Of a stretch of DNA of 64,000 bases, positions 30,133 through 44,660 are shown in pieces. Within the stretch, counting starts at the first letter, position 1. Each line of letters opens with the position of its first letter. The notes beneath the pieces are model-generated. The model saw only the letters and a program-made list of their open reading frames with translations. It ran no database searches and was not told the DNA's origin. Position numbers and translations under genes: made by a program. This DNA is from Streptomyces sp. CA-210063 (GTDB lineage: Bacteria; Actinomycetota; Actinomycetes; Streptomycetales; Streptomycetaceae). The stretch is taken from positions 7,440,001-7,504,000 of the forward strand of contig NZ_CP102512.1 of the NCBI RefSeq assembly GCF_024612015.1, read 5' to 3'.

Positions 30133-30222
30133 AGGGCAGACCCTCACAGCCCCTTGGCAACGGGGCAACCGTAATTCGCCCCCGCCCAGGCCCCGCGATC
30201 GCGTGCGCAACGCACCCATCGA

Positions 30223-30278
30223 TGAAGGTGACCGTCTCGTCGAGCGGCGCCCGCCCCGCACCATGCAGGTCACCTTCA
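30223..30278 (-). promoter_or_regulatory. 11-bp inverted repeat between peptidase and hydrolase genes
   Basis: TGAAGGTGACC (30223-30233) is the perfect complement of GGTCACCTTCA (30268-30278), 34 bases apart. It lies 9 bp after the M20 peptidase stop and 91 bp before the hydrolase start; either a loose terminator or an operator. Confidence 0.45.
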
Positions 30279-30286
30279 GAAGGGCC

Positions 30287-31567
30287 CTAGGCCCCCCGGG
30301 TGCGTTCCGCGATCCAGCCCGCCATCGCCCGTACGCCGATGCCGATGGCTCGCTCGTCCGGGGCGAAGTCGGGGAAGTGCGGGTAGGCGGTGGTGATGGA
30401 CGCGCCGGGGGCACGGACGCCGAGGAAGGTGTACGTGCCGGGGACGCGGTCCAGGTAGAGGCCGAAGTCCTCCCCGCTGAAGGGAGGGAACGCGGACTGG
30501 AGCACGGTGACCGCATCCCGGCCCCGGGTGCGGCGCAGGTGGTCGGCGAGCATGCGGGCGTCGTGTTCCGGGCAGACCATGGCGGGGAACGGATCGGCGG
30601 GGAAGCTCACCTGGGCCCCCGCGTACGACGTGGCCAGTCGGCGGATGTCGTGGCGTACCTCCGTGTACCGCTCCTCCGGCCAGCAGCGGTAGGACACGCT
30701 CACCCCGGCCTCCCGCACTCCGGCCCGGACGGCCACGAACCGGGCCAACGGCCCGTCCGGCGTCTGGGCGTCGGCGATCATCCGCTCGATGTCGGCGGGC
30801 GTCCGCGGGGGCGTCACCGTGGCGAGCGCGCCGATCTCGGCGGCCAGTCGCCGCGCGGCGTCGGGTGCCGCCGGTCCCGGGAGAGTCACCTCCGCCTTGT
30901 CCTGGCCCGGCATCCCGAAGCCCGGGGTCACGGCGAACCGGCCGACGGGGAAAGGCCCGCAGTGCAGCGCGTGGATCTCCTCGACGCCGGTGCGTTCCAG
31001 CACACCCGCGTCGATCAGCGCGCGGGCTCCGGCGAGGCTCTCCTCGGCGGGCTGGAAGAGAAACACCACCGTTCCGCTCAGTTGCCGCCGCAGCCGCGCC
31101 AGGACCTTCGCGATGCCCAGAGCCACCGTGGTGTGGAGGTCGTGTCCGCAGAGGTGGGCCGCCTCCGTGCCGCCCCCGACGATGTCATGGGGCGGCACCG
31201 CGTCCATGTCCGCCCGGTACGCGACCGTCCGGCCCGGACGCGAGCCACGCAGGACGCCGACGACGCCGTGGCCGCCCACCCCGGTGGCGACGGCCAGCCC
31301 GGCCGCGCGCAGCTCCCGGGTCACCACACCGGCGGTGTATCGCTCCTGCCCCGGCAGCTCGGGGTGCCGGTGGATGTCCCGCCTCAGCTCGATCAGCCCG
31401 CGCTCCAGACGCGCCACCTCGGCGTCCACCGCTCCCTGGCCCACGGACCCTCTTCCCCCGTCGGCGACGGCCCTCCCCGCACTGCCCCACACCGTTCCCG
31501 CACCGGCTGCCGCCGCACCGGCCAGCAGCGCACGGCGCGCGAGAGCATGCTCTATGGGACGCTTCAC
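30287..31567 (-). CDS. Secreted M20-family amidohydrolase (HipO/AmiA-like)
   Basis: 426 residues from GTG 31567 after AGGGGGAAC. A twin-Arg-type signal (ARRALLAGAAAAGAG) suggests Tat export. M20D zinc site: RADMDAVP, CGHDLHTT (Cys and His ligands), QPAEES (catalytic and ligand Glu). The family hydrolyses N-acyl amino acids such as hippurate or indole-acetyl conjugates. It lies 275 bp downstream of the importer ATPase gene on the same strand, so it may be read from the iron-regulated importer transcript and act on a conjugate, which is inference. No hairpin stands out in the gap. Confidence 0.85.
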   Translation of the reverse strand: MKRPIEHALARRALLAGAAAAGAGTVWGSAGRAVADGGRGSVGQGAVDAEVARLERGLIELRRDIHRHPELPGQERYTAGVVTRELRAAGLAVATGVGGHGVVGVLRGSRPGRTVAYRADMDAVPPHDIVGGGTEAAHLCGHDLHTTVALGIAKVLARLRRQLSGTVVFLFQPAEESLAGARALIDAGVLERTGVEEIHALHCGPFPVGRFAVTPGFGMPGQDKAEVTLPGPAAPDAARRLAAEIGALATVTPPRTPADIERMIADAQTPDGPLARFVAVRAGVREAGVSVSYRCWPEERYTEVRHDIRRLATSYAGAQVSFPADPFPAMVCPEHDARMLADHLRRTRGRDAVTVLQSAFPPFSGEDFGLYLDRVPGTYTFLGVRAPGASITTAYPHFPDFAPDERAIGIGVRAMAGWIAERTRGA

Positions 31568-31842
31568 TGTTCCCCCTCGGTCATCCGCCACGTGGTCTTC
31601 CGGAGCGTCCGCCAGGAAGGCCGGCTCTCGGCACCGTGTGTCGTGCCGTCACCGCCCGGCGAGCCGGAGACCTGTCGGAACACGATCGCTCCGCCCGTAG
31701 GCCGCTGCCCATCCGGCGAGCCACCGCTCAGGGGTGGGGATAGCCCCATCAGCGGGATCGCGGGCCGTGGAGAGCCGTGGAGAAGGGTCGAACCCACTGC
31801 GGCGGATCGCCCTTCCCGCGCGCAGAGGCTTCGACCCGTGCT

Positions 31843-33408
31843 TCACGTCATCCCCGCCGGTGTCCGCAGCAGAGCACGCGTCGCCGGGTGGCCCGGAGCG
31901 GTGAAGACGGTCGCCGTGGGGCCGGACTCGGCGGTGCGGCCCGCGTCGAGGACGGTGACCGTGTCGGTGCGGTCGGCGATGAGCGGGAGGTCGTGGCTGA
32001 TGAGGACGAGGGCCGTGCCCCGGTCCGAACGGAGCCGGACCAACAGGTCCATGATCGCCTCGGCGGTGGCGGAGTCCAGCGCCGAGGTCACCTCGTCGCA
32101 GATCAGCACGTCCGGATCGGCCGCCAGCGCCCGCGCGATGGCCACCCGCTGACGCTGTCCGCCGGACAGCTCGTGCGGGTAGCGGGAGGCGAACTCGGGC
32201 AGCAGGCCCACCTGTTCGAGGAGGACCGCCACCCGGGCCGGCACCTCACGGGACGCGCACCGCCGGTGCAGCCGCAGCGGCCTGCCGATCGCGGCGCCGA
32301 CCGTACGGCTGGGGTTGAGCGCACCGAGCGGGTTCTGCGTGACCAGCTGGATGCGGCGTCGCTGCTCGCGGCCGCGGCCGCGCAGGCCGGTGCTCAGTGG
32401 TACCCCGTCGAGGCGGATCGTGCCGGCGGTGACCGATTGCAGCCCGACGACGGCGCGGACGAGGGTGGTCTTCCCGGAGCCCGAGGCGCCGACGATGCCG
32501 GTCGCCGATCCGGGGGCGACGGTCAGTGTGACGCCGTCCAGCGCGGGGGCGTCCGAGCGTCGGCCGAAGGTGACCCGGAGATCGCGCACGTCGAGCACGG
32601 GTACGTCCACCGATCCGGTCTCCCGCGGCCCGCGCTCCGCCGGGTCGCCGGCCGGCGCGTCGCTCCCGTGGGGCGTACGTGGCCGCGGGACATGCGAGGC
32701 GCCGAGTTCCACCACCTCGTCCGCGATCCGCTCGACGAGTTCGGGGTCGTGGCAGGAGAGTGCGACGGCCAGCTGGTGCTCGCGGGCGAGGTGGCCCAGC
32801 AACTCGCCGATCTCGTCCCGGAGTTCGGGGTGCAGGCCGGCGGTCGGCTCGTCGAGGAGGAGGACGTGGGGGCGGCGGGCCAGGGCGCGGGCGAGGGCCA
32901 CGCGGCGCTGCTGTCCGCCGGACAGGGCCGGTGGCCGGCGCGTGGCGAGGCGGCCGTCGTCCGGGAGCCGCACCTCGGCGAGGAGTTGCCGCACCGCCTC
33001 CGGGGCGCGGTCGTCGGAGAGTTCGCGCAGGAGGGAGCGGACGCGCATCCGGGGGTTCAGTCCCGAGCCGGGGTCCTGACCGACGTAGGCGAGCCGCTCG
33101 CGGCGCAGGGCACGCAGCTCCCGTTCGGACAGGGCGAACACGTCACGGCCGAGGACTTCCACACGTCCGGACGTGCGCTCCGTGCCGGGCGGCAGGAGTC
33201 CGGTGAGGGCGCGCAGCAGCGTGGTCTTGCCCGAACCGGAGGGACCGGTCAGCGCGGTCACCCTGCCCGGGTGCAGGGTGAGTCGGGCGTCCTGGAGCAG
33301 GATCCGCCCGTCGGGGGCGGCCACGGTGAGGTCCGTGACCCGGGCCGCCGGGGTGGCGGCGGGCGTGGGGGAGTCGTCCTTCCGGTACCGGTCGGGTGTG
33401 TGACTCAC
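31843..33408 (-). CDS. Peptide/nickel-type ABC ATPase, two domains fused
   Basis: 521 residues from GTG 33408, overlapping the permease stop (GTGA). DppD-like and DppF-like ATPases are fused in one chain: first domain Walker A GPSGSGKTT, LSGGQQRR, LLLDEPT; second GASGSGKTT, LSGGQRQR, LICDEVT. The C-terminal half also has the LVTQNPLGALNPS segment typical of oligopeptide transporters. It energises uptake by the two permeases at 33405-35227. Last gene of the importer unit. Confidence 0.93.
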   Translation of the reverse strand: MSHTPDRYRKDDSPTPAATPAARVTDLTVAAPDGRILLQDARLTLHPGRVTALTGPSGSGKTTLLRALTGLLPPGTERTSGRVEVLGRDVFALSERELRALRRERLAYVGQDPGSGLNPRMRVRSLLRELSDDRAPEAVRQLLAEVRLPDDGRLATRRPPALSGGQQRRVALARALARRPHVLLLDEPTAGLHPELRDEIGELLGHLAREHQLAVALSCHDPELVERIADEVVELGASHVPRPRTPHGSDAPAGDPAERGPRETGSVDVPVLDVRDLRVTFGRRSDAPALDGVTLTVAPGSATGIVGASGSGKTTLVRAVVGLQSVTAGTIRLDGVPLSTGLRGRGREQRRRIQLVTQNPLGALNPSRTVGAAIGRPLRLHRRCASREVPARVAVLLEQVGLLPEFASRYPHELSGGQRQRVAIARALAADPDVLICDEVTSALDSATAEAIMDLLVRLRSDRGTALVLISHDLPLIADRTDTVTVLDAGRTAESGPTATVFTAPGHPATRALLRTPAGMT

Positions 33409-34220
33409 AGGACGGTCACCGCCTTCCGGCCGGTCTGCGGGGCGAGGGCTGCCGCCGCGAGGTTGACGCTCAGGGCGAGCAGGCCGATGGCGGCGCTGGG
33501 GGCGACCACGGCCCAGGGGTTGAGCAGGATGCCGGAGGAGTTCTCGCGGATCATCAACGCCCAGTCGGCGGCCGGGGGTTGGGGCCCGACCTGGAGGAAC
33601 GCGGCCGTGGCGACCAGGTAGACGGCGGCGACGAAGCGCAGACCGAACAGGGCGAGGAGGGTGGCCCGCAGGTTCGGCAGCACCTCGCGCAGCACCAGGT
33701 GCCACAGCCGTTCGCCGCCGGCCGCCGCGGCCTCGACGTAACCGGACGCGGCGACGGGGCCCGCCGCGCCGGCCGCGAGGCGCACCGCGTACGGCACGCC
33801 GAGGACGACGGCGGCGGCGATCACGGCGAGTCGGCCGCCGTCCGGCCAGGAGAGGGTGACGAGGAGGATGCCGAGCACGGCGGGCAGCAGCATCACCACG
33901 TCGGCGGTCCGTTCCACCAGGCGTCCGACGCGGGGCCGGAGCGCGCCGATCGCGCCGAGCACCGCCGCACTGCCGGTGACGAGCACCGCGACGAGAGTGG
34001 AGGACAGGACCAGGTCGCGGCCCCCGGCCAGCAGCCGGCTGAGCACGTCCCGGCCGAGCTGGTCGCCGCCGAGCAGGGCGTCCGGGCCGGGTTCCGCATA
34101 GGGCGCGGTGACCGGGGCGTCGATGGGATGCGGCGCGATCCAGGGCCCGACGAGGGCCAGACACACGAGCAGCAGCGGGGGCAGGACGCGTACGGCGGTG
34201 GCGCGCAGGCGGGGGGTCAT
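33405..34220 (-). CDS. Peptide/nickel-type ABC permease (DppC-like)
   Basis: 271 residues from ATG 34220 (ATGA overlap with the upstream permease). About six helices; N-terminal APHPIDAPVTAPYAEPGPDA and LLGGDQLGRDVLSRLLAGGRD are DppC/NikC signatures, and GYVEAAAAGGERLWHLVLREVLPN is the EAA loop that docks the ATPase. Part of the importer discussed for metal-chelate uptake. Confidence 0.9.
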   Translation of the reverse strand: MTPRLRATAVRVLPPLLLVCLALVGPWIAPHPIDAPVTAPYAEPGPDALLGGDQLGRDVLSRLLAGGRDLVLSSTLVAVLVTGSAAVLGAIGALRPRVGRLVERTADVVMLLPAVLGILLVTLSWPDGGRLAVIAAAVVLGVPYAVRLAAGAAGPVAASGYVEAAAAGGERLWHLVLREVLPNLRATLLALFGLRFVAAVYLVATAAFLQVGPQPPAADWALMIRENSSGILLNPWAVVAPSAAIGLLALSVNLAAAALAPQTGRKAVTVL

Positions 34221-35227
34221 CGGCGGCTTCCCGTCGTCAGGTCCCGTACCAGGTCGGCCAGGAGCAGTACGCCGGTGATGACCGCGCCGGCGAGGGCCGT
34301 CACCCCGGCGATGACGGGGCTGTCGCGGTCGGTGACCGCCGAGGCCAGGACCGAGCCGATACCGGGGTAGTTGAAGATGGTCTCCACGACGACGGCGCCG
34401 CCGAGGAGCATGCCCGTGGAGGTCGCGAGGCCGGCGGTGACGGTGGGCAGGGCACCGGGCAGGACGTGGTGGGTGAGGACCCGGTGCGGCGGGAGCCCGT
34501 CGAGGACGGCGGTCTCCACGTGCGGGGCGCGGGCCTCGTCGGCGAGGGCGGCGCGCACGATGCGGGTGTTCCAGCCGGTCTGCGGGATGGTCAGGGCGAG
34601 CGCGGGCAGGATCAGCATGGTCCAGTCGGAGGGGGTTCCGTCGGCGTCGGTGAGGGTGACGGCGGGCAGCCAGCCGGTCCACAGCGACAGCACCAGGAGC
34701 AGGGCGACGGCCACCACGAACTCGGGCAGCGCGAGGACCGCGGTCGCCGTGCCGGACACCGCCCGGTCCACCCGCCCGTCCGGTCGGAGCGCGGCCCAGC
34801 AGCCGAGCCCCAGGGACAGCGCGGCGGTGAGCAGCAGCGCGAGCCCGCCGAGGACGAGGGTGTTGGGGAAGGCACTCGACAGCAGGTCGGTCACCTTCTC
34901 GCCGCGCGCCGAGGTGCCCAGGTCCGCGGTGGGCAGGCCGCTCATCCAGTCCCAGAAGCGTTCCAGGACCGGTCTGTTCAGGCCCAGCAGCTCCCGCCGC
35001 CGTTCGATGTCGGCCGCGCTCTCGCCGCGCTCGGAGGTCGCGGCCGCGGCGTCCCCGGGGAGCAGTTCGACGGTGAGGAACACCAGCGCGAGGAGCACCA
35101 CGAGCAGCGCCGCCCGCTTCAGGACGACAGCACCCACCCGGGCGAGCAGCAGCAGGGGAGCCCGCGCCGGCCGGACCCTCGGAGTCAGGGGAGAGGGTCC
35201 GGCCGGCGCGGTCGTGTCAGGCGTCAA
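34217..35227 (-). CDS. Peptide/nickel-type ABC permease (DppB-like)
   Basis: 336 residues if it starts at TTG 35227, which overlaps the stop of the binding-protein gene (TTGA); the start is not certain because the first ~40 residues are Pro-rich. Signatures: GLNRPVLERFWDWMSGLPTADLGTSARG in the external loop, ARAPHVETAVLDGLPPHRVL as docking loop, VETIFNYPGIGSVLASAVTDRD near the end, all DppB/NikB-like. Confidence 0.88.
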   Translation of the reverse strand: MTPDTTAPAGPSPLTPRVRPARAPLLLLARVGAVVLKRAALLVVLLALVFLTVELLPGDAAAATSERGESAADIERRRELLGLNRPVLERFWDWMSGLPTADLGTSARGEKVTDLLSSAFPNTLVLGGLALLLTAALSLGLGCWAALRPDGRVDRAVSGTATAVLALPEFVVAVALLLVLSLWTGWLPAVTLTDADGTPSDWTMLILPALALTIPQTGWNTRIVRAALADEARAPHVETAVLDGLPPHRVLTHHVLPGALPTVTAGLATSTGMLLGGAVVVETIFNYPGIGSVLASAVTDRDSPVIAGVTALAGAVITGVLLLADLVRDLTTGSRR

Positions 35228-36777
35228 CGGGCCAGCCACGCCTGTTCGAGCTGGACCCTGCCGTAGCCGGGCAGCGTGGGCAGCCCGTTGACCTTGGCCC
35301 CGGCGAGGTCGATGCCGTCGGCCATGCCCCACAGCAGATAGCCGGAGCTGTCGTACTCGATCTGCTGGAGTTGCTTCAGCAACTGGGTGCGCGCGCTCGC
35401 GTCGGCGGTGCCGATGGCCTTCTCGTAGGCCTCGTCGAAGGCCTCGTCCTTCCAGCCGGCCTCGTTCTGGCCGCTGTCGGAGACCATCGTCTTGCTGGCG
35501 AAGAAGACGACGGAGTCGTTGGTGCCCCAGTAGGTGGTGTAGAGGTCGCCCTTGAGCCAGGTCTTGTCCCAGAAGGTCCCCGACTCCTGCTTGACGACCT
35601 TGACCTTCACGCCGGCCTCGCGGACCTGGGTGGCGAAGAGGGTGGCCGATTCGGCGAGACCGGAGATGTCCTCGGTGGTGTACAGCTCGTACGTCTTGGA
35701 GGTGTCGAACTTCGCCTCCTTCAGCAGTTCCTTGGCCTTGGCGAGGTCACGGGTGCGCTGCGGGATGCTCTTGTCGAAGGCCGGGTCGCCGGTGCCGAGG
35801 ATGTCGTTGGCGACGGTGCCGTAGCCGGAGAGGACCTGCTTGACCATGGCCTCGCGGTCGACGGCCAGGCGCAACGCCTCACGGACCTTCGCGTCGGCGA
35901 ACGGGCCGTCGGCGGTGCGCATGACGATGGGCATGGCCATGTCGTTGGGGCGGCGGACGGCCTGGATGTCCTTGCGGCTCTCGGCCGTACGCGCGGCGAC
36001 GGCGCCGACGTTGGAGGCGAGGTCGATCTGGCCGGCGAGCAGGGCGCTCGCCATGGCCTGCGGGCTCTCGAAGATCTTGACCTCGATGGCGTCGAGGTGC
36101 ACGTCGCCGCCGTACCAGTCCTCGTTGCGGACGAGGCGGGCGTTGCCGCCACGGAACCAGTCGAGCTTGAAGGGGCCGGTGCCGGGGGCCTTGGCGATGT
36201 CCTTGTCGGTGGTGCCCTTCGGTATGACGAAGGTGGTGAGGCGGGTCAGCAGGGGCAGTTCGGCGTTGGCGTAGTCGGAGACGAGGACGACGGTGTCGGT
36301 GCCCTCGGCGGTGATGTTCTTCTCCTGGATGCCGGGCAGCCGGGAGGCGCCCGCGGGGGTGGCGCGCAGGCGCTTCAGCGAGAAGACGAGGTCCTCGGCG
36401 GTGACCGGTGAACCGTCGTGGAACTTCGCGCCCTTGGCGATCGTGAACCGCCAGGTCTTCAGATCGTCCGAGGCCTTCCAGCTCGCGGCGAGGCGGGGCG
36501 CCGTGTTGGGCTTGGCGCCGGGGACGGTCAGGGTGTCGTAGATCAGGCTGAGAATGAGGTAGTCGCTCTCGTTGGCCTGACTCCCGTGCGGATCACGGGT
36601 GATGGCGCCGGCGCGGCCGAGCGCGCCGACCCGCAGGGTGCCGCCCTTGACGGGCTTGGCCGTACCGCCCGTGGCGGACGCGGCCGGCTCCTCGTCGCCG
36701 CCTCCGCAGGCAGTGAGCAGGGTGCCGGCTCCGATGGCGCCACCGAGCCAGAGCATGTGACGTCGCGTCAGCTCCAC
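35224..36777 (-). CDS. Peptide/nickel-type solute-binding lipoprotein (family 5)
   Basis: 517 residues. Lipoprotein signal MELTRRHMLWLGGAIGAG ending LLTAC. Family 5 signatures: LSLIYDTLTV, LAASWKASDDLKTWRFTIAKGAKFHDGSPVTAEDLVFSLKR, GTGPFKLDWF, REALRLAVDREAMV. Members bind peptides, nickel or metal chelates. First gene of the importer, with an iron box 30-48 bp before its start, so expression should fall when iron is plentiful. I infer uptake of a metal-loaded chelator. Confidence 0.92.
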   Translation of the reverse strand: MELTRRHMLWLGGAIGAGTLLTACGGGDEEPAASATGGTAKPVKGGTLRVGALGRAGAITRDPHGSQANESDYLILSLIYDTLTVPGAKPNTAPRLAASWKASDDLKTWRFTIAKGAKFHDGSPVTAEDLVFSLKRLRATPAGASRLPGIQEKNITAEGTDTVVLVSDYANAELPLLTRLTTFVIPKGTTDKDIAKAPGTGPFKLDWFRGGNARLVRNEDWYGGDVHLDAIEVKIFESPQAMASALLAGQIDLASNVGAVAARTAESRKDIQAVRRPNDMAMPIVMRTADGPFADAKVREALRLAVDREAMVKQVLSGYGTVANDILGTGDPAFDKSIPQRTRDLAKAKELLKEAKFDTSKTYELYTTEDISGLAESATLFATQVREAGVKVKVVKQESGTFWDKTWLKGDLYTTYWGTNDSVVFFASKTMVSDSGQNEAGWKDEAFDEAYEKAIGTADASARTQLLKQLQQIEYDSSGYLLWGMADGIDLAGAKVNGLPTLPGYGRVQLEQAWLAR

Positions 36778-36806
36778 TTGTTCCTCATTTTCCCGCAGTT
36801 GGCTGG

Positions 36807-36825
36807 ATTGCTTAGCCTTACCTAC
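36807..36825 (-). promoter_or_regulatory. Iron box (IdeR/DmdR type), importer side
   Basis: Read on the minus strand GTAGGTAAGGCTAAGCAAT matches the 19-bp consensus TTAGGTTAGGCTAACCTAA at 14 of 19 positions by my count. Located 30 bp upstream of the binding-protein start, where a bound repressor would block transcription. Confidence 0.75.
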
Positions 36826-36877
36826 CCTGTGTCGCCCCTGTACGACAAGACCACCAACGGTGTGACATAGATCAAAG

Positions 36878-36896
36878 TTAGGTAAGCCTTCCCTGT
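36878..36896 (+). promoter_or_regulatory. Iron box (IdeR/DmdR type), biosynthesis side
   Basis: TTAGGTAAGCCTTCCCTGT matches TTAGGTTAGGCTAACCTAA at 13 of 19 positions by my count, with an intact TTAGGT left arm. It lies 137 bp before the oxygenase start; CATAGAT at about 36866-36872 could be a -10 element. Confidence 0.7.
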
Positions 36897-37032
36897 TTAC
36901 CTGTGGGGTGGCTATGTTTCCAACGGGCTACCCGAGATCGCATCCGACCACGCGATCGGGATCGGGAGGCCTTCTTCGCCATGCCCGGAGATCCTCAACA
37001 CCTTGCCCCGCACCGGAACGAACGGATCCCCC

Positions 37033-38022
37033 ATGCCCACGGGAATCGCCCCCGTACGTCTGCTCGATCCCGACTCGGTGGCCGAACTGACCGCCGCCGC
37101 CCGCACCCTTCTCACCTCGTACGACGGCTCATCCACCCACCCGGGCCTGCTGGCTCAGGTCCCCGCCGTCGCCGCTGCGTTGAGCGACCGGATACGCCAC
37201 GCCTGCCGCCCCGTCGACACCGCCGAGGGCCTGTTCGTGCTGCGCGGTCTGCCCGTCGACGACGCGGCGCTCGGTCCCACTCCCGGCCACTGGTCGACCG
37301 TCGGCGACGCCGGTGCCGTATACGACGTCGTCCTGCTCCTGCTGTCGACGGTGATGGGTACCCCCATCGCCTGGGAGGGACAGCAGGAAGGCCGTTTCGT
37401 GCACAACATCGTGCCGTCTCCCGGCCACGAGGAGGAGCAGACCGGCGCCAGCAGCAGCGTGCTGCTCAGCCCGCACACCGAGGACGCCTTCCACCCCGGC
37501 CGGGCCCACCTCCTGGTCCTCGGCTGCATGCGCAACCCCGACTCGGTCGCCACCACGGCGGCCAGCATCCGCCAGGTCGAACTCGACGCCGGTGAAGTGA
37601 AGTTGCTCAGCCGCCCGGTCCTGCCGATCCTCCCCGACGACGCCTACGAGGAGGCCCAGGGCTACGCGGGCGAGCCACCGGCCGTGCCCACGCTGTGGGA
37701 GTCGGAGGACGGCCTGACCCTGCGCTTCGACCCGGCCTACACCCCGCTGGACCAGGCACCCGAGGACCACCGCGCGGCCTACGCCCGCCTGGAGGACGAA
37801 CTCGCCCGCGTCAGCGGCGCGGTGAGCCTGAACCCCGGTGAGGTCCTGGTCGTCGACAACGATCTGGTCGTCCACGGCCGGGTGCCCTTCAAGGCCCGCT
37901 ACGACGGCACGGACCGCTGGCTGAAACGTTCCTCCGTGCGCGTGAAGGGCCGCCGGACCCGGCCGCCCGCCGAGGAGTCCGAGCACGGTTACGGCCAGGC
38001 CGCCGTGGAGGCGTTCGCATGA
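37033..38022 (+). CDS. Fe(II)/2-oxoglutarate oxygenase, AsnO/VioC/clavaminate synthase type
   Basis: 329 residues from ATG 37033; the binding site is weak, and a TTG at 37003 is in frame. Iron ligands are visible: HTEDAFH (His-x-Glu) in the centre and the distal His in DNDLVVHGRVPFKARYDG followed by the 2-oxoglutarate-binding Arg in WLKRSSVR. This subgroup hydroxylates free amino acids at the beta carbon (Asn, Arg) or closes clavams. Here the likely substrate is an amino acid or diaminopropionate-derived intermediate of the same operon; that is inference. First gene of the iron-box operon, overlapping the next by ATGA. Confidence 0.88.
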   Translation: MPTGIAPVRLLDPDSVAELTAAARTLLTSYDGSSTHPGLLAQVPAVAAALSDRIRHACRPVDTAEGLFVLRGLPVDDAALGPTPGHWSTVGDAGAVYDVVLLLLSTVMGTPIAWEGQQEGRFVHNIVPSPGHEEEQTGASSSVLLSPHTEDAFHPGRAHLLVLGCMRNPDSVATTAASIRQVELDAGEVKLLSRPVLPILPDDAYEEAQGYAGEPPAVPTLWESEDGLTLRFDPAYTPLDQAPEDHRAAYARLEDELARVSGAVSLNPGEVLVVDNDLVVHGRVPFKARYDGTDRWLKRSSVRVKGRRTRPPAEESEHGYGQAAVEAFA

Positions 38023-39041
38023 CCCGCATCGACAGCCCCGGAGGGAACGCCGTGACGCCCGACGACAAGACCCTGCGCGTCCTCAGCACCAGCGACGTGG
38101 CCGGCATCGACATCACGCTGCCCGACGTCGTCTCCGTGGTGGAACAGGCCTACCGCACCCTGGCCGAGGGCCGCTCCGACAATCCGCAGAAGCTCACCGT
38201 CAAGCCCGAGGACGGCCACTCCGTGGCCTACGCGATGCTCGGCCGGGACGGGGAGCGCGGGGTCGTCGCGGTCAAGACGTCGTACAAGTACGGCCTCCAC
38301 GAGGACCGCGACAAGCAGCACTACTACACGACGCTGAGCCTCTACGACGACGCCACGGGCCTGCCGGTCGCGATGATGGACTGCGGCCGCGTCGGGGCAC
38401 TGCGCACCCCGGCCGTCTCCGCGCTCCTCGCCCGCGAACTCGCCGCCCCCGGCAGCCGCAGCGCCCTCGTCATCGGCACCGGCGTCCAGGGCCGGCTCGC
38501 TCTTCCCTTCCTGCTGACCACGCTGCCGGACCTGGACCGGCTGATGCTCTTCGGGACCCACCCCGACGGCATCCGGGCCGTACGCGAACAGCTGCACGCC
38601 CACTTCCCCGAGCGGGACGTGGAGATCGTGACGGATCTGCGCGCGGCCGCCGAGGAGGCGGACATCGTGCTCGCCACCGCCGGCCCCAACACGCCCGCGT
38701 CCGTCGAGGCCGAGTGGCTGAAGCCGTCGGCCCTGTCCGTGCTGATCGGGTACGGCATCGCGGCCTCCACCCTGCACACGGCCGACCGCGTCATCGCCAC
38801 CAGCGAGGCCCAGATGCGGGTCACCGGTACCGACATGGCGGACGCGAGCGGTCGACTGCGCGACGTGGACGCCGAGTTCCCCGAGGTCCTGGCGGGCCGT
38901 GCCGAGGGCCGTACGGACGCCGGACAGCGGATCTTCGCGTACAACAGTGGGCTGGTCGTCACCGACATCGCGCTCGGCCACCGGTTCGCACAGCTCGCGC
39001 TCGCCCAGGGGCTGGGCACGGCGGTACCGCTGTGGACGTGA
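38019..39041 (+). CDS. sbnB: SbnB-like dehydrogenase of diaminopropionate synthesis
   Basis: 340 residues from ATG 38019 (ATGA overlap). Ornithine cyclodeaminase fold: VKTSYKYGLHEDRDKQHYYTTLSLYDDATGLPVAMMDCG, then GALRTPAVSALLARELA and the NAD site ALVIGTGVQGRLALP. In staphyloferrin B synthesis SbnB oxidatively cleaves N-(1-amino-1-carboxyl-2-ethyl)-glutamate to L-2,3-diaminopropionate and 2-oxoglutarate. The presence of an SbnA homologue two genes on favours that role over ornithine cyclodeamination. Confidence 0.85.
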   Translation: MTRIDSPGGNAVTPDDKTLRVLSTSDVAGIDITLPDVVSVVEQAYRTLAEGRSDNPQKLTVKPEDGHSVAYAMLGRDGERGVVAVKTSYKYGLHEDRDKQHYYTTLSLYDDATGLPVAMMDCGRVGALRTPAVSALLARELAAPGSRSALVIGTGVQGRLALPFLLTTLPDLDRLMLFGTHPDGIRAVREQLHAHFPERDVEIVTDLRAAAEEADIVLATAGPNTPASVEAEWLKPSALSVLIGYGIAASTLHTADRVIATSEAQMRVTGTDMADASGRLRDVDAEFPEVLAGRAEGRTDAGQRIFAYNSGLVVTDIALGHRFAQLALAQGLGTAVPLWT

Positions 39042-40399
39042 CCACCACCCTCACCTCGCACACCACCGAGGAGGTGCGCGCGCTCCTCGCCCCGCCCGGC
39101 AGCGCCCTTCCGCACGAGCTGAGCCACGGTCTGGGCGGGCCGTACCACCTGCTGTTCCCGCAGCGGTTCGACGCCAACGCCGCCGCTTTCCGGCAGGCGT
39201 TCGCCGATGCGGGCGTGGACGGCCGGGTGTACTTCGCCAAGAAGGCCAACAAGGCCGCCGTCTTCGTGGAGCGGGCGGCCGTCGCGGGCCTGGGCGTGGA
39301 CGTGGCGAGCCACGGCGAGCTGCGCGAGGCGCTGGCGGCCGGTGTGCGCGGTACGGACCTGGTCGTCACCGGCCCGGCCAAGGACGACCAACTGCTGCGG
39401 GTCGCCGTGCTGCACGGCGCGCTCGTCGCCGTGGACGCCCTCGACGAACTGGACCGCGTCCTCGCCCTCGCCGACGAACTCGGCCGTACCGCCCGGGTGT
39501 TGCTACGTCGCCTTCCCCCCGGCCAGCCGCACAGCCGCTTCGGGCTGGACGACGCCGAGATGAACACGGCCCTGCGCCGCTGCCGCACCGAGCACGTGGA
39601 CATGGCGGGGTTCAGCTTCCACCTCTCCGGCTACGACATCCGTGAACGGGCCGACCTCGCCGCCGAGTTGGTACGGCTGTGCGCCCAAGCCCGTACGTGG
39701 GGGCTGCGGGCCGACCGGATCAGCGTCGGCGGCGGCTTCGCGGTGGACTACGTGGGCGCGGAGGACTGGCGCCGCTTCCAGGAAAGCACCCGCCCCGAGC
39801 ACTTCCACAAGCACAAGGCCTTCTCCGGCTACTACCCGTACCACTCGCCCGTCGCCGGAGCCGACGCCCTCGCCGCCATGCTCACGACCACGCCGGCGGG
39901 CGAGGAGTCGACCCTGGCCGAACTGGTACGGGCGGCCGGGGTGACGCTGCTCGTCGAGCCGGGCAGGGCGCTGCTGGACCAGGCGGGCTGCACCGTCTTC
40001 CGGGTCCAGGGCGTCAAGGAACGCGACGGCTACGACATCCTCACCGTGGACGGCAGCAGCCTCAGCCTGTCCGAGCAGTGGTTCGAGAGCGAGTTCCTCC
40101 CGGACCCGGTGCTCATCCCCGCCGACCGGGCCGACATCGCCGACGCGGGCCCGTACCCGGCCTGTGTGGGCGCCGCGACGTGCCTGGAGTCGGACATGCT
40201 CACCTGGCGAAAGATCCCCTTCCCCGTCCGCCCGGCCACCGGCGACCTGCTGGTGTATCTGAACACCGCGGGCTACCAGATGGACTCCAACGAGTCCCCG
40301 TTCCACGAGCTGCCGCTGCCGCCCAAGGTCGTCATCGAGCCACCCACGTACGACTCCCCCTCCGCCCGTCCCCGCTGGCGTCTCGACCGCCACCCGTAG
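39038..40399 (+). CDS. Fold-type III PLP decarboxylase, SbnH-like
   Basis: 453 residues from GTG 39038 (GTGA overlap; GTG 39032 also in frame). Alanine-racemase-type barrel: YFAKKANKAAVFVERAA carries the PLP Lys, RISVGGGFAVDY the glycine loop, LLVEPGRALLDQAG the substrate/PLP region, and PYPACVGAATCLESDMLTW the C-terminal active-site Cys. Relatives include diaminopimelate decarboxylase, the Y4yA group and SbnH, which decarboxylates a citryl-diaminopropionate intermediate. Here it should decarboxylate diaminopropionate or a derivative, giving an ethylenediamine unit. Confidence 0.85.
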   Translation: MTTTLTSHTTEEVRALLAPPGSALPHELSHGLGGPYHLLFPQRFDANAAAFRQAFADAGVDGRVYFAKKANKAAVFVERAAVAGLGVDVASHGELREALAAGVRGTDLVVTGPAKDDQLLRVAVLHGALVAVDALDELDRVLALADELGRTARVLLRRLPPGQPHSRFGLDDAEMNTALRRCRTEHVDMAGFSFHLSGYDIRERADLAAELVRLCAQARTWGLRADRISVGGGFAVDYVGAEDWRRFQESTRPEHFHKHKAFSGYYPYHSPVAGADALAAMLTTTPAGEESTLAELVRAAGVTLLVEPGRALLDQAGCTVFRVQGVKERDGYDILTVDGSSLSLSEQWFESEFLPDPVLIPADRADIADAGPYPACVGAATCLESDMLTWRKIPFPVRPATGDLLVYLNTAGYQMDSNESPFHELPLPPKVVIEPPTYDSPSARPRWRLDRHP

Positions 40400-40412
40400 G
40401 GAGTTCTCAGCC

Positions 40413-41468
40413 ATGAACCCTCTGGACCACCCTCTGCACCGGCCGGCCATCGTCCGCCAGGTCTCCGAACTCATCGGCGCCACCCCGCTGTTCGAGCTGT
40501 GCCGCACCGAGAGCGACGCACGGCTGCTGCTGAAGCTGGAGCAGTTCAACCCGACCGGGACGGCGAAGATACGCATGGCCCGGCAGATGGTGATCGACGC
40601 CGAGGAGCGCGGGCTGCTGCGCCCCGGCGGCCGGATCATCGAGTCCACCTCGGGCAACACCGGGCTCGGTCTCGCGGTCGTCGCCGCCGAGCGCGGCTAC
40701 ACGTTCACCGCGGTCGTCGACCACCACGCCTCCAAGGACAAGCTGCGCGCCATGAAGGCCATGGGCACGGAACTCGTCTACGTCGCCGACGAGGGTGACG
40801 ACGACCTGGCCACGGCCGCGCGTGAGGAGCTGGCGGAGCGCATGGCCGCCGAGTCCGACAACGCCTACTTCACCGAGCAGCACAACAACCTCGCCAACGG
40901 GGTCGGTTACCACCCGGTGGCCCGGGAGCTCGACGCCGCGCTGGACGGCCGTATCGACATCCTGATCGGCGCGGTCGGCACCGGCGGCGGCCTGTTCGGC
41001 ACCGGGGGCGCACTGCGCCGGACCGTGCCCGAGGTCACGATCGTCGGGGTCGAGCCCAAGGGCTCCATCGCCTTCGGGCCGCCCGCGCACGACTACCACC
41101 AGTCGGGGACCGGCACACCCGAGGGCGCCACCATCGGCGCCATGGTCGACTACGGGCTGCTGGACGAGGGCGCGAAGGTCGGCGACGTGGAGGCCTTCGC
41201 GACCGCGCGGGCCGTCGCCCGCCGCACCGGGCTGCTGCTCGGCGGCTCGGCGGGCGGGGTGGTGTACGAGGCACTGACCCGGATGACCTCGCTCGCGCCG
41301 GGGACGACTATGGTCGCTCTGATCAACGACGGCGGGGAGAAGTACCTGGACACCGTCTTCGACGACGACTGGATGAGCGCCCGGGACCTGCTCTCCCCCG
41401 ACGTCGAACGCGAGGTGGACGAGCTGCTCGCCAAACTCCGCCGCGTCGCACCGGACGCGCGGGGATAA
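40413..41468 (+). CDS. sbnA: SbnA-like synthase of diaminopropionate synthesis (cysteine synthase family)
   Basis: 351 residues from ATG 40413, 13 bp after the previous stop with AGGGAG upstream. Fold-type II PLP enzyme: QFNPTGTAKIRMAR has the PLP Lys, STSGNTGLGLAVVAAERG the cofactor loop, GAVGTGGGLFGTGG the phosphate loop. SbnA joins O-phosphoserine and glutamate. The typical cysteine synthase loop has SVKDR; here TAKIRM, as in the SbnA branch. The pair with SbnB defines a diaminopropionate pathway. Confidence 0.87.
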   Translation: MNPLDHPLHRPAIVRQVSELIGATPLFELCRTESDARLLLKLEQFNPTGTAKIRMARQMVIDAEERGLLRPGGRIIESTSGNTGLGLAVVAAERGYTFTAVVDHHASKDKLRAMKAMGTELVYVADEGDDDLATAAREELAERMAAESDNAYFTEQHNNLANGVGYHPVARELDAALDGRIDILIGAVGTGGGLFGTGGALRRTVPEVTIVGVEPKGSIAFGPPAHDYHQSGTGTPEGATIGAMVDYGLLDEGAKVGDVEAFATARAVARRTGLLLGGSAGGVVYEALTRMTSLAPGTTMVALINDGGEKYLDTVFDDDWMSARDLLSPDVEREVDELLAKLRRVAPDARG

Positions 41469-41508
41469 CACCCCGTCGTACGCCCCCCACACCCCAGGAA
41501 CGGAACCG

Positions 41509-42909
41509 ATGCCGCCCGCCCTCGCCCGCCTCCTCGGCGACAGCCGCGCCCTCGCCTCGCTCGCCGTGCCGCTGGCGCTCACCCAGCTCGCCCAGGTCGC
41601 CCTGACCACCACCGACACCGTCATGATGGGCCTGCTCGGCACCGAGGCCCTGGCGGCGGGCGGCCTCGCCATGGTGATCTTCAACCAGTTGCGCACGATG
41701 GGCGTCGGCATGGTCACCGCCGTCGGCAACCAGGTCGCGGCGGCCGACGCGCGGGCGGAATCCGCCGGGGTCTCCGAGGAGGCGCAGGAGGATGTCCGGG
41801 ACCTCGTCCGCGCCAGCCTCCTGCTGTCCACCCTCGCGGGCGTCGTCGGTGCCGTCCTGATGGTGCTCATCGGGCACGCCGTGATCCTGCTCGGCCAGGA
41901 CCCGGAGGTGGTCGACGCCGCGAAGCCCGTCCTCTACACGATGGCGCCCGGACTGATCCCCTGCCTGTGGTTCCAGGCGATACGGCAGTTCACCGTCGGC
42001 ATGCGCCGCCCCCAGGCCCTGCTGCGCATCACCCTCGCCTCGATCGCCGTCAACGTGGGCCTCAACTGGGCCTTCATCCACGGCACCTGGATCTTCCCCG
42101 AGCTGGGCCTGCCGGGCATCGGCCTGTCCACCAGCCTGGTGTACGCCCTGTCCTGCCTGGCCCTCTACTTCTCCGCCCGGCGCGACGCCCGGCTCGCCCC
42201 GGTGCTGTCCCTCAGTATCTGGAAGACCCGGCCCGCCACGCTGCGCAGGCTCACCGGCCTCGGCACGCCGATCGCCGCCACCTACGGCTCCGAGGCGGGC
42301 TTCTTCTTCGTCGTCGCGCTCTTCGCGGGCAGCTTCGGCACGTCGGCGCTGGCCGCGCACACCGCCGTCAACCAGCTCGTCTACATCGTCTTCCAGATAG
42401 CCGTCGGCCTCTCCCACGCCGCGTCCATCGGGGTCAGCCGTGAGCTGGCGCTGCACCACCTGGCCGCTGCCCAGCGCCTGAAGACCACGGCCCTGGCCTG
42501 TGCGGCGGCGGTGATGGCCGTGGTCGGGCTGGTGTACGTGACCCTGCCGGGCCTGGTCCTCGCCCCCTTCTTCGACAGCGGCGACGACAGGGCCGTGGAG
42601 ATCGCCACGCAGCTGCTGCTGGTCGCCGCCGTACTGCAGTTCTTCGACTGCACCCAGAACATCGGCGTCGGTCTCCTGCGCGGCCTCGACGACACCAAGG
42701 GCGGCTTCCGGGTCACCCTCGTCGGCTACTGGCTCGTGGGCCTGCCCGCCGCAGTCCTTCTCGGCCTCGCCACCGGGCTGGACACCCTCGGCATCTGGCT
42801 CGGCCTCCTCACCGGCCTCGCCACCACCGCCGTACTCCTCCTGCGCCGCTTCAACCGAGGCCTCGACCGGCTGCCCCGGGCGACGGAACCGGCGCCGTCC
42901 CAGGCCTGA
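41509..42909 (+). CDS. MATE-family multidrug/metabolite exporter
   Basis: 466 residues, twelve predicted helices, from ATG 41509 (AGGAACGGAACCG before it). Start LAVPLALTQLAQVALTTTDTVMMGLLG and the internal repeat GTPIAATYGSEAGFFFVVALFAGSFG are MATE signatures. Co-directional, 40 bp after the SbnA-like gene, so it is the likely exporter of the operon product. A Glu/Ala-rich loop (about residues 83-100) is unusual but located in a cytoplasmic turn. Confidence 0.9.
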   Translation: MPPALARLLGDSRALASLAVPLALTQLAQVALTTTDTVMMGLLGTEALAAGGLAMVIFNQLRTMGVGMVTAVGNQVAAADARAESAGVSEEAQEDVRDLVRASLLLSTLAGVVGAVLMVLIGHAVILLGQDPEVVDAAKPVLYTMAPGLIPCLWFQAIRQFTVGMRRPQALLRITLASIAVNVGLNWAFIHGTWIFPELGLPGIGLSTSLVYALSCLALYFSARRDARLAPVLSLSIWKTRPATLRRLTGLGTPIAATYGSEAGFFFVVALFAGSFGTSALAAHTAVNQLVYIVFQIAVGLSHAASIGVSRELALHHLAAAQRLKTTALACAAAVMAVVGLVYVTLPGLVLAPFFDSGDDRAVEIATQLLLVAAVLQFFDCTQNIGVGLLRGLDDTKGGFRVTLVGYWLVGLPAAVLLGLATGLDTLGIWLGLLTGLATTAVLLLRRFNRGLDRLPRATEPAPSQA

Positions 42910-42964: not shown

Positions 42965-43411
42965 TTACGCGTCCAGCATCCGCCGCAGCAGATTCCGCAA
43001 CGACTCCCGCTCGGCCGCGCTCAACCCGGCCAGCGGCTCCCGGGCGAAGCCCAGGGAATCCCGCAGGCTGCGAGCCACCCGCCGCCCCTCCTGCGTCGCC
43101 GCGGCCAGCTTCACCCGTCGGTCGTTGGGGTCGGGTCGCCGCTCGACCAGCCCCCGCCCCTCCAGCCGGTCCACGATCCCCGTCACGTTCGACGGTTCGC
43201 AGCGGAGTTTCTGGGCGAGGCGGCGCATGGGGAGCGGTTCCAGGGACAGAAGACCGAGGAGGCGGGCTTGGGCCCCGGTGAGGGAGTGTTCCGCGGCGGC
43301 GTCCTCGTACTCCTCGTGGTAGCGGGCCACGACCGTACCGATGAGCTCGACGACCTCAAGGGTCAGCGAGTCGACGCGGGGGGTCGGGACGGTCGTCTTC
43401 TCCATGGCCAT
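42965..43411 (-). CDS. MarR-family transcriptional regulator
   Basis: 148 residues from ATG 43411 (ATG 43405 also possible). Winged helix-turn-helix: LTGAQARLLGLLSLEPLPMRRLAQKLRCEPSNVTGIVDRLEGRGLVERRPDPNDRRV. Divergent from the reductase gene at 43524, whose expression it probably represses through the AT-rich inverted repeat in the 112-bp gap. Convergent with the MATE gene. Confidence 0.9.
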   Translation of the reverse strand: MAMEKTTVPTPRVDSLTLEVVELIGTVVARYHEEYEDAAAEHSLTGAQARLLGLLSLEPLPMRRLAQKLRCEPSNVTGIVDRLEGRGLVERRPDPNDRRVKLAAATQEGRRVARSLRDSLGFAREPLAGLSAAERESLRNLLRRMLDA

Positions 43412-43432
43412 GGGCTCCAGACTACCTCTTTA

Positions 43433-43455
43433 CTTGACAACATGAAATATTCAAG
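43433..43455. promoter_or_regulatory. Probable MarR operator
   Basis: CTTGA and TCAAG arms 13 bases apart (43433-43455), within an AT-rich stretch between the divergent MarR and reductase genes. An outer pair CTACCT (43422) and AGGTAG (43470) with ACAAC/GTTGT adds symmetry. TTGACA at 43435-43440 could also be the -35 of the reductase promoter. Confidence 0.55.
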
Positions 43456-43523
43456 CGCATGGTTGTTTCAGGTAGTGAAGTAACCGCACGGTATGTACGA
43501 ACGCACCCGCAGGAAGGCCCCCC

Positions 43524-44546
43524 ATGTCCGACACCCCCGCCCTCCCCGCCACCAGCCGCGAATGGCACCTGCTGAGCCGCCCCGTCGGCTGGCCCAAGGA
43601 CGAGGACTTCGCCCTGGTCGAGGCGGAGATCCGGCAGCCCGGCACGGGTGAGGTCCTCGTACGGAACAAGTACCTCTCCGTGGACCCGTACATGCGTGGC
43701 CGCATGAGCGACGCGAAGTCGTACGTCGCCCCGTTCGAGCTGGGCAAGGTCATGCAGGGTGGTGCCGTGGGCGAGGTCGTGGCCTCCGGGGCCGAGGGCA
43801 TAGCCGTCGGTGACCACGTGCTGCACTTCGGCGGCTGGCGCGAGTACGCGACCTTCGACGCCAAGCAGGCCGTGAAGGTGGACCCGGACGCGGCGCCGCT
43901 CTCCGCCTACCTCGGCGTCCTCGGCATGACCGGTCTCACCGCCTACGCGGGCCTGCTGCGGGTCGGCGCCTTCAAGGAGGGCGACGCGGTGTTCGTGTCC
44001 GGCGCCGCCGGCGCCGTCGGCAGCCAGGTCGGCCAGATCGCCAAGCTGAAGGGCGCCTCCCGTGTCATCGGCTCCGCCGGCTCCGACGAGAAGGTCAAGC
44101 TGCTCGTCGAGGAGTACGGCTTCGACGCCGCCTTCAACTACAAGAACGGCCCGGTCTGGGAGCAGCTCAAGGAGGCCGCCCCGGACGGCATCGACGTCTA
44201 CTTCGACAACGTCGGCGGCGAGCACCTGGAGGCCGCGATCGGCGCGCTCAACCTGCGCGGCCGGGCCGTGATCTGCGGCATGATCTCCCAGTACAACGCG
44301 ACCGAGCCGACCCCCGGCCCGCGCAACATGGTCAAGATCCTGCAGAACCGCCTCCGCGTCGAGGGCGTCCTCGTCGGCGACCACTACGACCTCCAGCCCC
44401 AGTTCGTCCAGGACATCGGCCCCTGGGTCGCCTCGGGCGAACTCAAGTACCGCGAGACGGTCGTCGAGGGCATCGAGAACAACCTCGAAGCCTTCCTCGG
44501 CGTCCTGCGCGGCGACAACACCGGCAAGATGATCGTCAAGCTCTGA
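43524..44546 (+). CDS. NADP-dependent oxidoreductase (leukotriene/curcumin reductase type)
   Basis: 340 residues, zinc-free medium-chain reductase. SREWHLLSRPVGWPKDEDF at the start, LSVDPYMRGRM, Rossmann loop VFVSGAAGAVGSQVGQIAKLKG, YFDNVGGEHLEAAI, GMISQYNATEPTPGPRNM. Members reduce alkenals, enones or leukotriene-like molecules with NADPH and often answer to electrophile stress, which suits control by the divergent MarR regulator. Terminator follows. Confidence 0.93.
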   Translation: MSDTPALPATSREWHLLSRPVGWPKDEDFALVEAEIRQPGTGEVLVRNKYLSVDPYMRGRMSDAKSYVAPFELGKVMQGGAVGEVVASGAEGIAVGDHVLHFGGWREYATFDAKQAVKVDPDAAPLSAYLGVLGMTGLTAYAGLLRVGAFKEGDAVFVSGAAGAVGSQVGQIAKLKGASRVIGSAGSDEKVKLLVEEYGFDAAFNYKNGPVWEQLKEAAPDGIDVYFDNVGGEHLEAAIGALNLRGRAVICGMISQYNATEPTPGPRNMVKILQNRLRVEGVLVGDHYDLQPQFVQDIGPWVASGELKYRETVVEGIENNLEAFLGVLRGDNTGKMIVKL

Positions 44547-44602
44547 AGAAGCTCGCGCGGCAGAACCCGTGACGCTTGTATGACTCAGTCGTTGCACACG
44601 CC

Positions 44603-44637: not shown

Positions 44638-44660
44638 GCCATGTGTGCGGACGTACGGCC

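What the first reader, a model, noticed from the sequence alone, without database searches (positions are those of the whole stretch)
31843..42909. Iron-box-controlled gene set for a small diaminopropionate-derived chelator without any NRPS or NIS synthetase
Seen: two divergent operons share a promoter region with two iron boxes. One encodes a peptide/nickel-type importer, the other an AsnO/VioC-like oxygenase, SbnB-like, SbnH-like and SbnA-like enzymes and a MATE exporter, with overlaps that show one transcript. Known: SbnA and SbnB make L-2,3-diaminopropionate and SbnH is a decarboxylase in staphyloferrin B synthesis. Inferred: the cluster makes, exports and re-imports a metal chelator under low iron. 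It lacks SbnE/F/C-type synthetases, so the assembly chemistry would be new or use an enzyme encoded elsewhere. I do not know of a described cluster with exactly this set.
Basis: partly seen in the sequence, partly recalled or inferred. Interest (0 to 1): 0.88.

Follow-up and report, generated by a model that had tools for sequence, protein, structure and literature searches.

The report
Known EDHA iron-chelator gene cluster

Summary
In detail: nine genes at 31843-42909 form two divergent operons whose shared 255-bp region has two iron boxes, and the window has no NIS (PF04183) or NRPS condensation (PF00668) match. The novelty claim does not hold. All nine genes occur in the same order and orientation in Streptomyces sp. 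MA5143a (77-95% protein identity) and S. scabiei 87.22 (71-89%). Passages of two papers name MA5143a as reference for the EDHA (ethylenediaminesuccinic acid hydroxyarginine) operon and an 11-kb EDHA cluster in S. scabiei; the window cluster is 11.07 kb. The primary paper (Spohn 2018) is not held. The oxygenase is nearest to L-arginine hydroxylases, fitting a hydroxyarginine arm. Where binding-protein and oxygenase genes adjoin, an iron box is present in 81 of 81 distinct relatives. Most likely chemistry (inferred): Arg hydroxylation, PLP beta-substitution on O-phosphoserine, coupling by the SbnB-family enzyme, decarboxylation, MATE export, NikA-type re-import. In passing: six of 148 genomes of a mycobacterial-type genus hold relatives (eight copies); none of seven fetched shows the oxygenase, and five lie beside lpqS, a copper-homeostasis gene: a possible copper-linked chelator.

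The parts
31843..33408 (-). ABC transporter ATPase, two fused nucleotide-binding domains (521 aa)
   Evidence: PF00005, 2 stretches; NikE/Dpp/Cnt-type models hit below their cut-offs
33405..34220 (-). ABC permease 2, NikC/OppC-type; 4-nt overlap with the ATPase gene
   Evidence: PF00528; NCBIfam Opp2C/Opp1C 109 bits, below cut-off; start
34217..35239 (-). ABC permease 1, NikB/OppB-type; start codon uncertain (GTG 35239 taken)
   Evidence: PF00528; NCBIfam Opp2B 202 bits vs 350 cut-off (scanned from 35215); start candidates
35224..36777 (-). Substrate-binding protein with a lipoprotein-like start, NikA/DppA family (SBP_bac_5), presumed receptor for the metal-chelator complex
   Evidence: PF00496 E 3.4e-78; NikA 121 bits vs 393 cut-off
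36807..36825 (.). Iron box 1 (DmdR1/IdeR-type operator) upstream of the importer operon
   Evidence: 14/19 to the recalled consensus; conserved in relatives
36878..36896 (.). Iron box 2, upstream of the biosynthetic operon
   Evidence: 14/19; conserved in relatives
37033..38022 (+). Fe(II)/2-oxoglutarate L-arginine hydroxylase-like oxygenase (hydroxyarginine arm)
   Evidence: best PDB chain L-arginine beta-hydroxylase 4m23, 181 bits, vs asparagine oxygenase 2og5, 113 bits; GntD 250 and VioC 217 bits, both below cut-off; H148, E150 and H281 invariant in 86 of 86 aligned
38019..39041 (+). Ornithine-cyclodeaminase/mu-crystallin family enzyme (SbnB-like), proposed coupling enzyme
   Evidence: PF02423; SbnB model 110 bits vs 326.9 cut-off
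39032..40399 (+). Fold-type III PLP decarboxylase (SbnH/LysA-like; several database entries say 'Y4yA family' or 'alanine racemase'), proposed to strip the carboxylate from the serine-derived bridge
   Evidence: PF02784; LysA 124 bits vs 297.9 cut-off; names
40413..41468 (+). Cysteine-synthase-fold PLP enzyme (SbnA-like), proposed beta-substitution on O-phosphoserine
   Evidence: PF00291; SbnA model 228 bits vs 349.95, cystathionine beta-synthase model 229 bits; Lys52, the presumed PLP lysine, invariant in 86 of 86 aligned
41509..42909 (+). MATE-family exporter, presumed chelator secretion
   Evidence: TIGR00797 175.8 bits vs 147.4 cut-off, met

Best explanation
The locus is an orthologue of the EDHA (ethylenediaminesuccinic acid hydroxyarginine) aminopolycarboxylate siderophore cluster. 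When iron is low, a DmdR1/IdeR-type repressor leaves the two boxes and both operons are transcribed (inferred from the boxes). The oxygenase hydroxylates L-arginine, probably at C-beta (inferred from family). The SbnA-like PLP enzyme replaces the phosphate of O-phospho-L-serine with the alpha-amino group of an amino acid, most simply hydroxyarginine, giving an N-(2-amino-2-carboxyethyl)-amino acid (inferred). The SbnB-family enzyme joins the free amine to a C4 2-oxo acid such as oxaloacetate by reductive amination, the reverse sense of SbnB's known oxidation (recalled), giving the succinyl arm (inferred). The PLP decarboxylase removes the carboxylate of the former serine unit, leaving an ethylenediamine bridge (inferred). 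The product would be a hexadentate ligand: two amines, three carboxylates, one hydroxyl (my reading of the name). MATE exports it; the NikA/DppA-type binding protein and ABC importer take back the ferric complex (inferred). Shown here: gene content, order, conservation, family likeness, iron boxes. From passages of papers: EDHA assignment and iron response of the family. The confidence given is for the identity of the cluster; for this order of chemical steps I would say about 0.5.
For: All nine genes collinear and equally oriented in Streptomyces sp. MA5143a (L047) and S. scabiei 87.22 (L051) (spans 11.2 and 11.0 kb, window 11.07 kb). PMC10702961 (passages) names MA5143a as EDHA reference with genes AesA-D and calls EDHA iron-responsive. 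PMC8914351 (passages) gives an 11-kb EDHA cluster scab_5231-scab_5311 (nine tags if numbered in tens, my inference). Of 89 distinct loci with the decarboxylase, 70 have all nine genes in the window's arrangement and 82 the five-gene core. Iron boxes in 81 of 81 regions between adjoining binding-protein and oxygenase genes, MA5143a (15 and 14 of 19) and S. scabiei (15 and 14) included. Oxygenase nearest to Arg hydroxylases. In two beta-proteobacteria (L122, L126) the core carries a different oxygenase (30-31% identity) whose best models are again GntD and VioC and, for L122, whose best solved structures include L-Arg hydroxylases; L122 has a TonB-dependent siderophore receptor upstream.
Against: The primary EDHA paper is not held, so I did not check gene by gene that the published AesA-D are these genes, nor the published structure and pathway. 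That L051 is scab_5231-5311 is inferred from size, gene number and position. No enzyme reaches an equivalog cut-off, so substrates are inferred; the best oxygenase model is the enduracididine hydroxylase GntD rather than VioC. At a guanidinium-contact position recalled for VioC the window oxygenase has Ala where 4m23 has Tyr in the phmmer alignment. Iron boxes were not found in L110, L118, L122 and L126, core loci without the NikA-type binding protein. PMC8914351 reports that the S. scabiei cluster responds to cello-oligosaccharides, so iron need not be the only signal.
Confidence: 0.92

Rival explanations
1. Same assembly line but a different final ligand: the oxygenase in this lineage acts on another basic amino acid (for example an enduracididine-like one), giving an EDHA analogue.
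For: The best NCBIfam model is the enduracididine hydroxylase GntD (250 bits) ahead of VioC (217), both below cut-off. The Arg-hydroxylase family is known for drift in outcome (NapI desaturates; recalled).
Against: Nine-gene collinearity with the EDHA reference strain at 91% oxygenase identity. By Pfam none of the nine genes is an aminotransferase-type enzyme of the sort I recall for enduracididine synthesis. The best solved structure is an L-Arg hydroxylase.
Confidence: 0.06
2. Zinc- or nickel-directed chelator (EDDS-like zincophore or nickelophore) rather than an iron system, since the importer is NikA-type.
For: EDDS in Amycolatopsis japonicum is Zur-controlled (PMC6103462, passage). Importer resembles nickel/opine transporters.
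Against: Iron boxes in 81 of 81 relatives tested; best score for a recalled 15-nt Zur-type consensus is 10 of 15 in the window region and 7-11 in 88 relatives' regions, duplicates included. The family is reported as iron-responsive.
Confidence: 0.03
3. Staphyloferrin-B-like siderophore finished by an NIS synthetase encoded elsewhere in the genome.
For: SbnA/SbnB/decarboxylase likeness; 6 IucA_IucC matches elsewhere in the genome.
Against: No IucA_IucC match in the window. The same nine genes travel together in 70 of 89 distinct relatives, though I did not search those loci for NIS genes. An Arg-hydroxylase-like gene has no place in staphyloferrin B (recalled).
Confidence: 0.02

Closest known systems
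EDHA (ethylenediaminesuccinic acid hydroxyarginine) cluster, Streptomyces sp. MA5143a / S. scabiei 87.22; MIBiG BGC0002567 per PMC11888242
   Same: All nine genes, same order and orientation, 71-95% protein identity, about 11 kb, two iron boxes
   Different: Nothing found beyond sequence divergence
[S,S]-EDDS (aes) cluster of Amycolatopsis japonicum
   Same: Aminopolycarboxylate chelator made without NRPS/NIS (recalled)
   Different: Zur-controlled; two succinate arms, so no Arg oxygenase expected (recalled); its sequence was not compared here
Staphyloferrin B (sbnA-I) of Staphylococcus aureus
   Same: SbnA and SbnB families and a fold-type III PLP decarboxylase (likeness to SbnH itself recalled)
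   Different: Needs NIS synthetases (recalled), absent from the window; here an Arg-hydroxylase-like gene instead; equivalog cut-offs not met
Viomycin/capreomycin Dap and hydroxyarginine genes (VioC/CmnC and SbnA/SbnB-type genes; recalled)
   Same: Arg hydroxylase with SbnA/SbnB-type genes; CmnC and CmnK chains are hit by the oxygenase and the OCD protein
   Different: Those feed an NRPS antibiotic (recalled); here no NRPS in the window, and a decarboxylase and iron boxes

Membership tests
EDHA siderophore cluster | Orthologous gene set, order and orientation as in Streptomyces sp. MA5143a | tested here: met
   9 of 9 genes, 77-95% identity
EDHA siderophore cluster | Size of S. scabiei scab_5231-5311 (11 kb per PMC8914351) | tested here: met
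   Window 11.07 kb; S. scabiei locus L051 has the nine genes over 11.0 kb; tag identity itself inferred
EDHA siderophore cluster | Iron boxes in the shared promoter region, as in the reference strain | tested here: met
   14 and 14 of 19 in the window; 15 and 14 in MA5143a
EDHA siderophore cluster | Iron-responsive expression | not testable with these tools
   No expression data
EDHA siderophore cluster | Arginine hydroxylase for the hydroxyarginine arm | tested here: inconclusive
   Family-level: nearest to L-Arg hydroxylases, below equivalog cut-offs
EDHA siderophore cluster | Product is EDHA | not testable with these tools
   No metabolite data
EDDS (aes) zincophore cluster | Zur control | tested here: not met
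   Best score for a recalled Zur-type consensus 10 of 15 in the window region; two iron boxes instead
EDDS (aes) zincophore cluster | Sequence relation to the A. japonicum genes | not tested
   Its locus was not among the 80 fetched
Staphyloferrin B / NIS siderophores | IucA/IucC-type synthetase in the cluster | tested here: not met
   6 genome matches, none in the window
NRPS siderophores | Condensation-domain NRPS in the cluster | tested here: not met
   31 genome matches, none in the window; nearest more than 200 kb away
Staphylopine-type opine metallophores | Importer meets Cnt models | tested here: not met
   CntA 92 bits vs 800, CntD 243 vs 380
Staphylopine-type opine metallophores | Nicotianamine-synthase-like and opine dehydrogenase genes (recalled) | tested here: not met
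   No such family among the Pfam hits of the nine genes

The most novel reading that the evidence does not exclude
The SbnA-like / SbnB-family / decarboxylase / MATE set is a portable, synthetase-free assembly line for EDTA-like chelators whose arm and metal are swapped by changing one gene and one operator: iron with an Arg hydroxylase (this window), zinc without one (EDDS, recalled and not compared here), and copper in some mycobacterial-type genomes, where copies without the oxygenase lie downstream of lpqS, two of them with a RicR-type box just upstream. In all of them the SbnB-family enzyme would run as a synthetic reductive coupler rather than releasing diaminopropionate.
Probability: 0.4. 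Interest if true: 0.55.

Novelty: already known. Interest (0 to 1): 0.2.

Why it matters
It adds one more genome to a known siderophore family and shows that iron boxes accompany the cluster in 81 of 81 distinct relatives with the adjoining NikA-type binding protein. What remains open is the coupling chemistry, and whether the same enzymes make chelators for other metals, notably the copper-linked relatives seen in passing.

Tried and rejected
Zinc control was considered from memory of EDDS and rejected on the operators. A Dap-forming SbnA/SbnB pair feeding an NIS synthetase was considered and judged unlikely. I suspected that the distant oxygenase in Paraburkholderia/Trinickia meant a non-arginine arm; its best models are again GntD and VioC (below cut-off) and solved L-Arg enzymes (L122 only), so the idea was dropped. 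Rfam (gathering thresholds) and tRNA scans of the window found nothing. A residue-level reading of substrate from the oxygenase alignment was not decisive. No structure prediction was run. Two searches for EDDS/aes genes in print gave no account of its gene set (listings, and passages of three of the papers and, for one that also came up, none read).
Full report
Where it lies. The window is bases 7440001-7504000 of a single-contig genome of 10.86 Mb, taken as Streptomyces because its nearest named relatives are. The nine genes were found at the stated coordinates. Pfam assigns: two fused ABC ATPase domains, two binding-protein-dependent permeases, an SBP_bac_5 binding protein, a TauD-fold oxygenase, an ornithine cyclodeaminase/mu-crystallin protein, an Orn/Arg/DAP decarboxylase-type PLP enzyme, a PALP enzyme and a MATE transporter. 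The left operon reads leftwards (binding protein, permease, permease, ATPase), the right one rightwards (oxygenase, OCD, decarboxylase, SbnA-like, MATE). On the right, neighbours overlap by 4 and 10 nt, then lie 13 and 40 nt apart; on the left they overlap by 4, 4 and 16 nt, the last depending on an uncertain start of the first permease.

Iron boxes. In the 255-bp gap between the binding-protein and oxygenase starts, two 19-mers match the recalled DmdR1-type palindrome at 14 of 19; no other 19-mer in the 64-kb window reaches 13. Their cores form an 11-nt inverted pair. Conservation: among 88 relatives in which binding-protein and oxygenase genes adjoin, 88 have a 19-mer of 13 or better and 81 have two. 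After removing duplicate loci the counts are 81 of 81 and 74 of 81; 6 of 3000 control stretches of 310 nt elsewhere in the same loci reach 13, and 24 of 1760 mononucleotide-shuffled regions do. Core loci without that binding protein were looked at apart: L108 16 of 19, but L110 11, L118 9, L122 10 and L126 10; so the box is not universal. Two further actinobacterial loci reach 14 (L134) and 13 (L135). A recalled Zur-type consensus scores 10 of 15 in the window and 7-11 in the 88 relatives.

What the enzymes are. No enzyme reaches an NCBIfam equivalog cut-off: SbnB model 110 bits against 326.9; SbnA model 228 against 349.95, level with cystathionine beta-synthase at 229; decarboxylase best against LysA, 124 against 297.9; oxygenase GntD 250 against 345 and VioC 217 against 418.6. 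MATE meets its subfamily cut-off (175.8 against 147.4). Against solved structures the oxygenase is nearest to L-arginine beta-hydroxylase 4m23 (181 bits), then 6daw (recalled as the arginine desaturase NapI), CmnC and the L-Arg hydroxylase 2wbq group (recalled as VioC), and further from asparagine oxygenase 2og5 (113 bits). H148, E150 and H281, the presumed metal ligands, are invariant in 86 of 86 aligned. The OCD protein is about as near to pyrroline-2-carboxylate reductase (68 bits) as to 4m54 (60 bits; recalled as SbnB, the entry says putative ornithine cyclodeaminase). So 'SbnA/B/H-like' is right at family level and should not be read as function.

Relatives. In 150 genomes of the genus (own included) 43 have an oxygenase match at E 1e-40 or better; 18 have one at 60% identity or more, and 17 of these carry it beside at least the OCD and decarboxylase genes (the exception is G109, locus L043). 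A scan of named species genomes with the decarboxylase gave 303 relatives, of which the best 80 were kept. With the 20 loci that makes 100, of which 92 are distinct; 89 of these hold the decarboxylase, 82 the five-gene core collinear and 70 all nine genes in the window's arrangement. Of the 19 that fall short, by my reading 11 are cut by contig ends, six lack the NikA-type importer genes in whole or nearly so (L041, L093, L110, L118, L122, L126), L036 lacks a recognisable ATPase and L123 a recognisable MATE. In 396 genomes drawn from the phylum (own included) 6 have the decarboxylase. Of the three outside the genus, L134 has all nine genes, L135 the five-gene core, and L133 a core without oxygenase.

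Identification. I recalled the EDHA siderophore and looked for it in print. PMC8914351 (passages) states that S. scabiei has an 11-kb cluster, scab_5231 to scab_5311, for EDHA, missed by the genome mining used there, citing Spohn et al. 2018. PMC10702961 (passages) uses Streptomyces sp. MA5143a as EDHA reference with genes AesA-D, calls EDHA iron-responsive, and detected the class with antiSMASH 7. PMC11888242 (passages) gives MIBiG BGC0002567 and 1,450 related windows in 24 genera. Both named strains had turned up in my own scan before that reading: MA5143a (L047) with all nine genes at 77-95% identity and S. scabiei 87.22 (L051) at 71-89%. I therefore take the window's cluster as a member of the EDHA family. 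The primary paper is not held; that AesA-D are these very genes, and the published pathway, I could not read.

Mechanism. Shown: gene set, arrangement, families, operators. From papers: product name and iron response of the family. Inferred: arginine hydroxylation; PLP-dependent replacement of the phosphate of O-phosphoserine by an amino acid's amine; reductive coupling with a C4 2-oxo acid by the OCD-family enzyme; decarboxylation to leave an ethylenediamine bridge; MATE export; NikA-type re-import. I favour hydroxyarginine as the amine in the SbnA-like step, because none of the nine genes is an aminotransferase that would turn it into a 2-oxo acid.

An independent support. In Paraburkholderia lacunae and Trinickia dinghuensis (L122, L126) the core is present with a clearly different oxygenase (30-31% identity to the window's, against 50-65% for the other four genes). 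Its best NCBIfam models are again GntD and VioC, below cut-off, and for L122 the best solved structures are 6daw (216 bits) and L-Arg hydroxylases (up to 202 bits). L122 has a TonB-dependent siderophore receptor upstream (344 bits against 223.5); L126 has a similar frame (my reading). Replacement of the gene with retention of the apparent substrate class favours hydroxyarginine as a real part of the product.

A copper-linked relative. L133 (G296) has SbnA-like, OCD, decarboxylase and MATE genes but no oxygenase match, downstream of an LpqS gene (NF052429, 141.9 bits against 35) and a divergent multicopper oxidase. One exact match to the recalled RicR-type palindrome lies just upstream of the part of lpqS that fits the model; 39 of 200 shuffles of the locus hold at least one match at up to one mismatch. 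In 148 genomes of that genus 6 have the decarboxylase, eight copies in all, three of them in G562 and one (G642) with stops inside. I fetched seven of the eight. Five have the order lpqS, cysK2-like, OCD, decarboxylase, MATE; L151 is cut by a contig end inside the OCD gene and L155 is interrupted; no oxygenase match was found in any of the seven; the multicopper oxidase is found in L133 and L154 only; the palindrome lies just upstream of lpqS in L133 and L150, elsewhere in L153, L154 and L155, and not in L151 or L152; no iron box above 12 of 19 was found. That lpqS and cysK2 belong to the copper response in M. bovis/M. tuberculosis is in PMC9048740 (passages). Two searches (20 of 104 and 15 of 38 papers listed, titles and abstract openings seen) showed no paper on such a chelator cluster; this is weak evidence of novelty.

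Verdict. Interest is low for the window itself; the open questions are the coupling chemistry and the copper-linked relatives.

Noticed in passing
L133:4337-11694 (G296); also L150, L152, L153, L154: Core without the oxygenase (cysK2-like, OCD, decarboxylase, MATE) directly downstream of the copper gene lpqS in five of seven fetched loci, with a RicR-type palindrome just upstream of lpqS in L133 and L150: possibly a copper-linked EDDS-like chelator.
   Followed up: partly
L122:4273-16700 and L126:4427-12745: Paraburkholderia and Trinickia carry the core with a non-orthologous GntD/VioC-type oxygenase; L122 has a TonB siderophore receptor upstream (L126 a similar frame) and Fe-siderophore-type ABC importer genes after the MATE gene (my reading of the ORFs), so the Gram-negative version uses a different uptake system.
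   Followed up: partly
L093, L108 (=L041), L110, L118: Actinobacterial loci with the five-gene core but no NikA-type importer beside it (L093 keeps a 100-residue piece of the binding protein at 47% identity); L093 and L108 still have an iron box of 15-16/19, L110 and L118 none above 11/19 in the stretch examined.
   Followed up: partly
L123 right of 8574; L036 left of 5649: Streptosporangium minutum has eight of the genes but no recognisable MATE in the fetched stretch; L036 has eight without a recognisable ATPase.
   Followed up: no
L118:6881-7869: The oxygenase match in this S. chattanoogensis locus lies in two frames, so the gene may be broken or the sequence wrong there.
   Followed up: no
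L043 (G109), L045, L046: Oxygenase relatives (60%, 47%, 42% identity) without any of the other eight genes in the fetched stretch: Arg-hydroxylase-like genes in other contexts.
   Followed up: no
window 29293-31591 and 42965-48481: Flanking genes: alpha/beta hydrolase, M20 peptidase, MarR regulator, zinc-type oxidoreductase, beta-lactamase-family protein, M14 carboxypeptidase; no sign that they belong to the cluster.
   Followed up: partly
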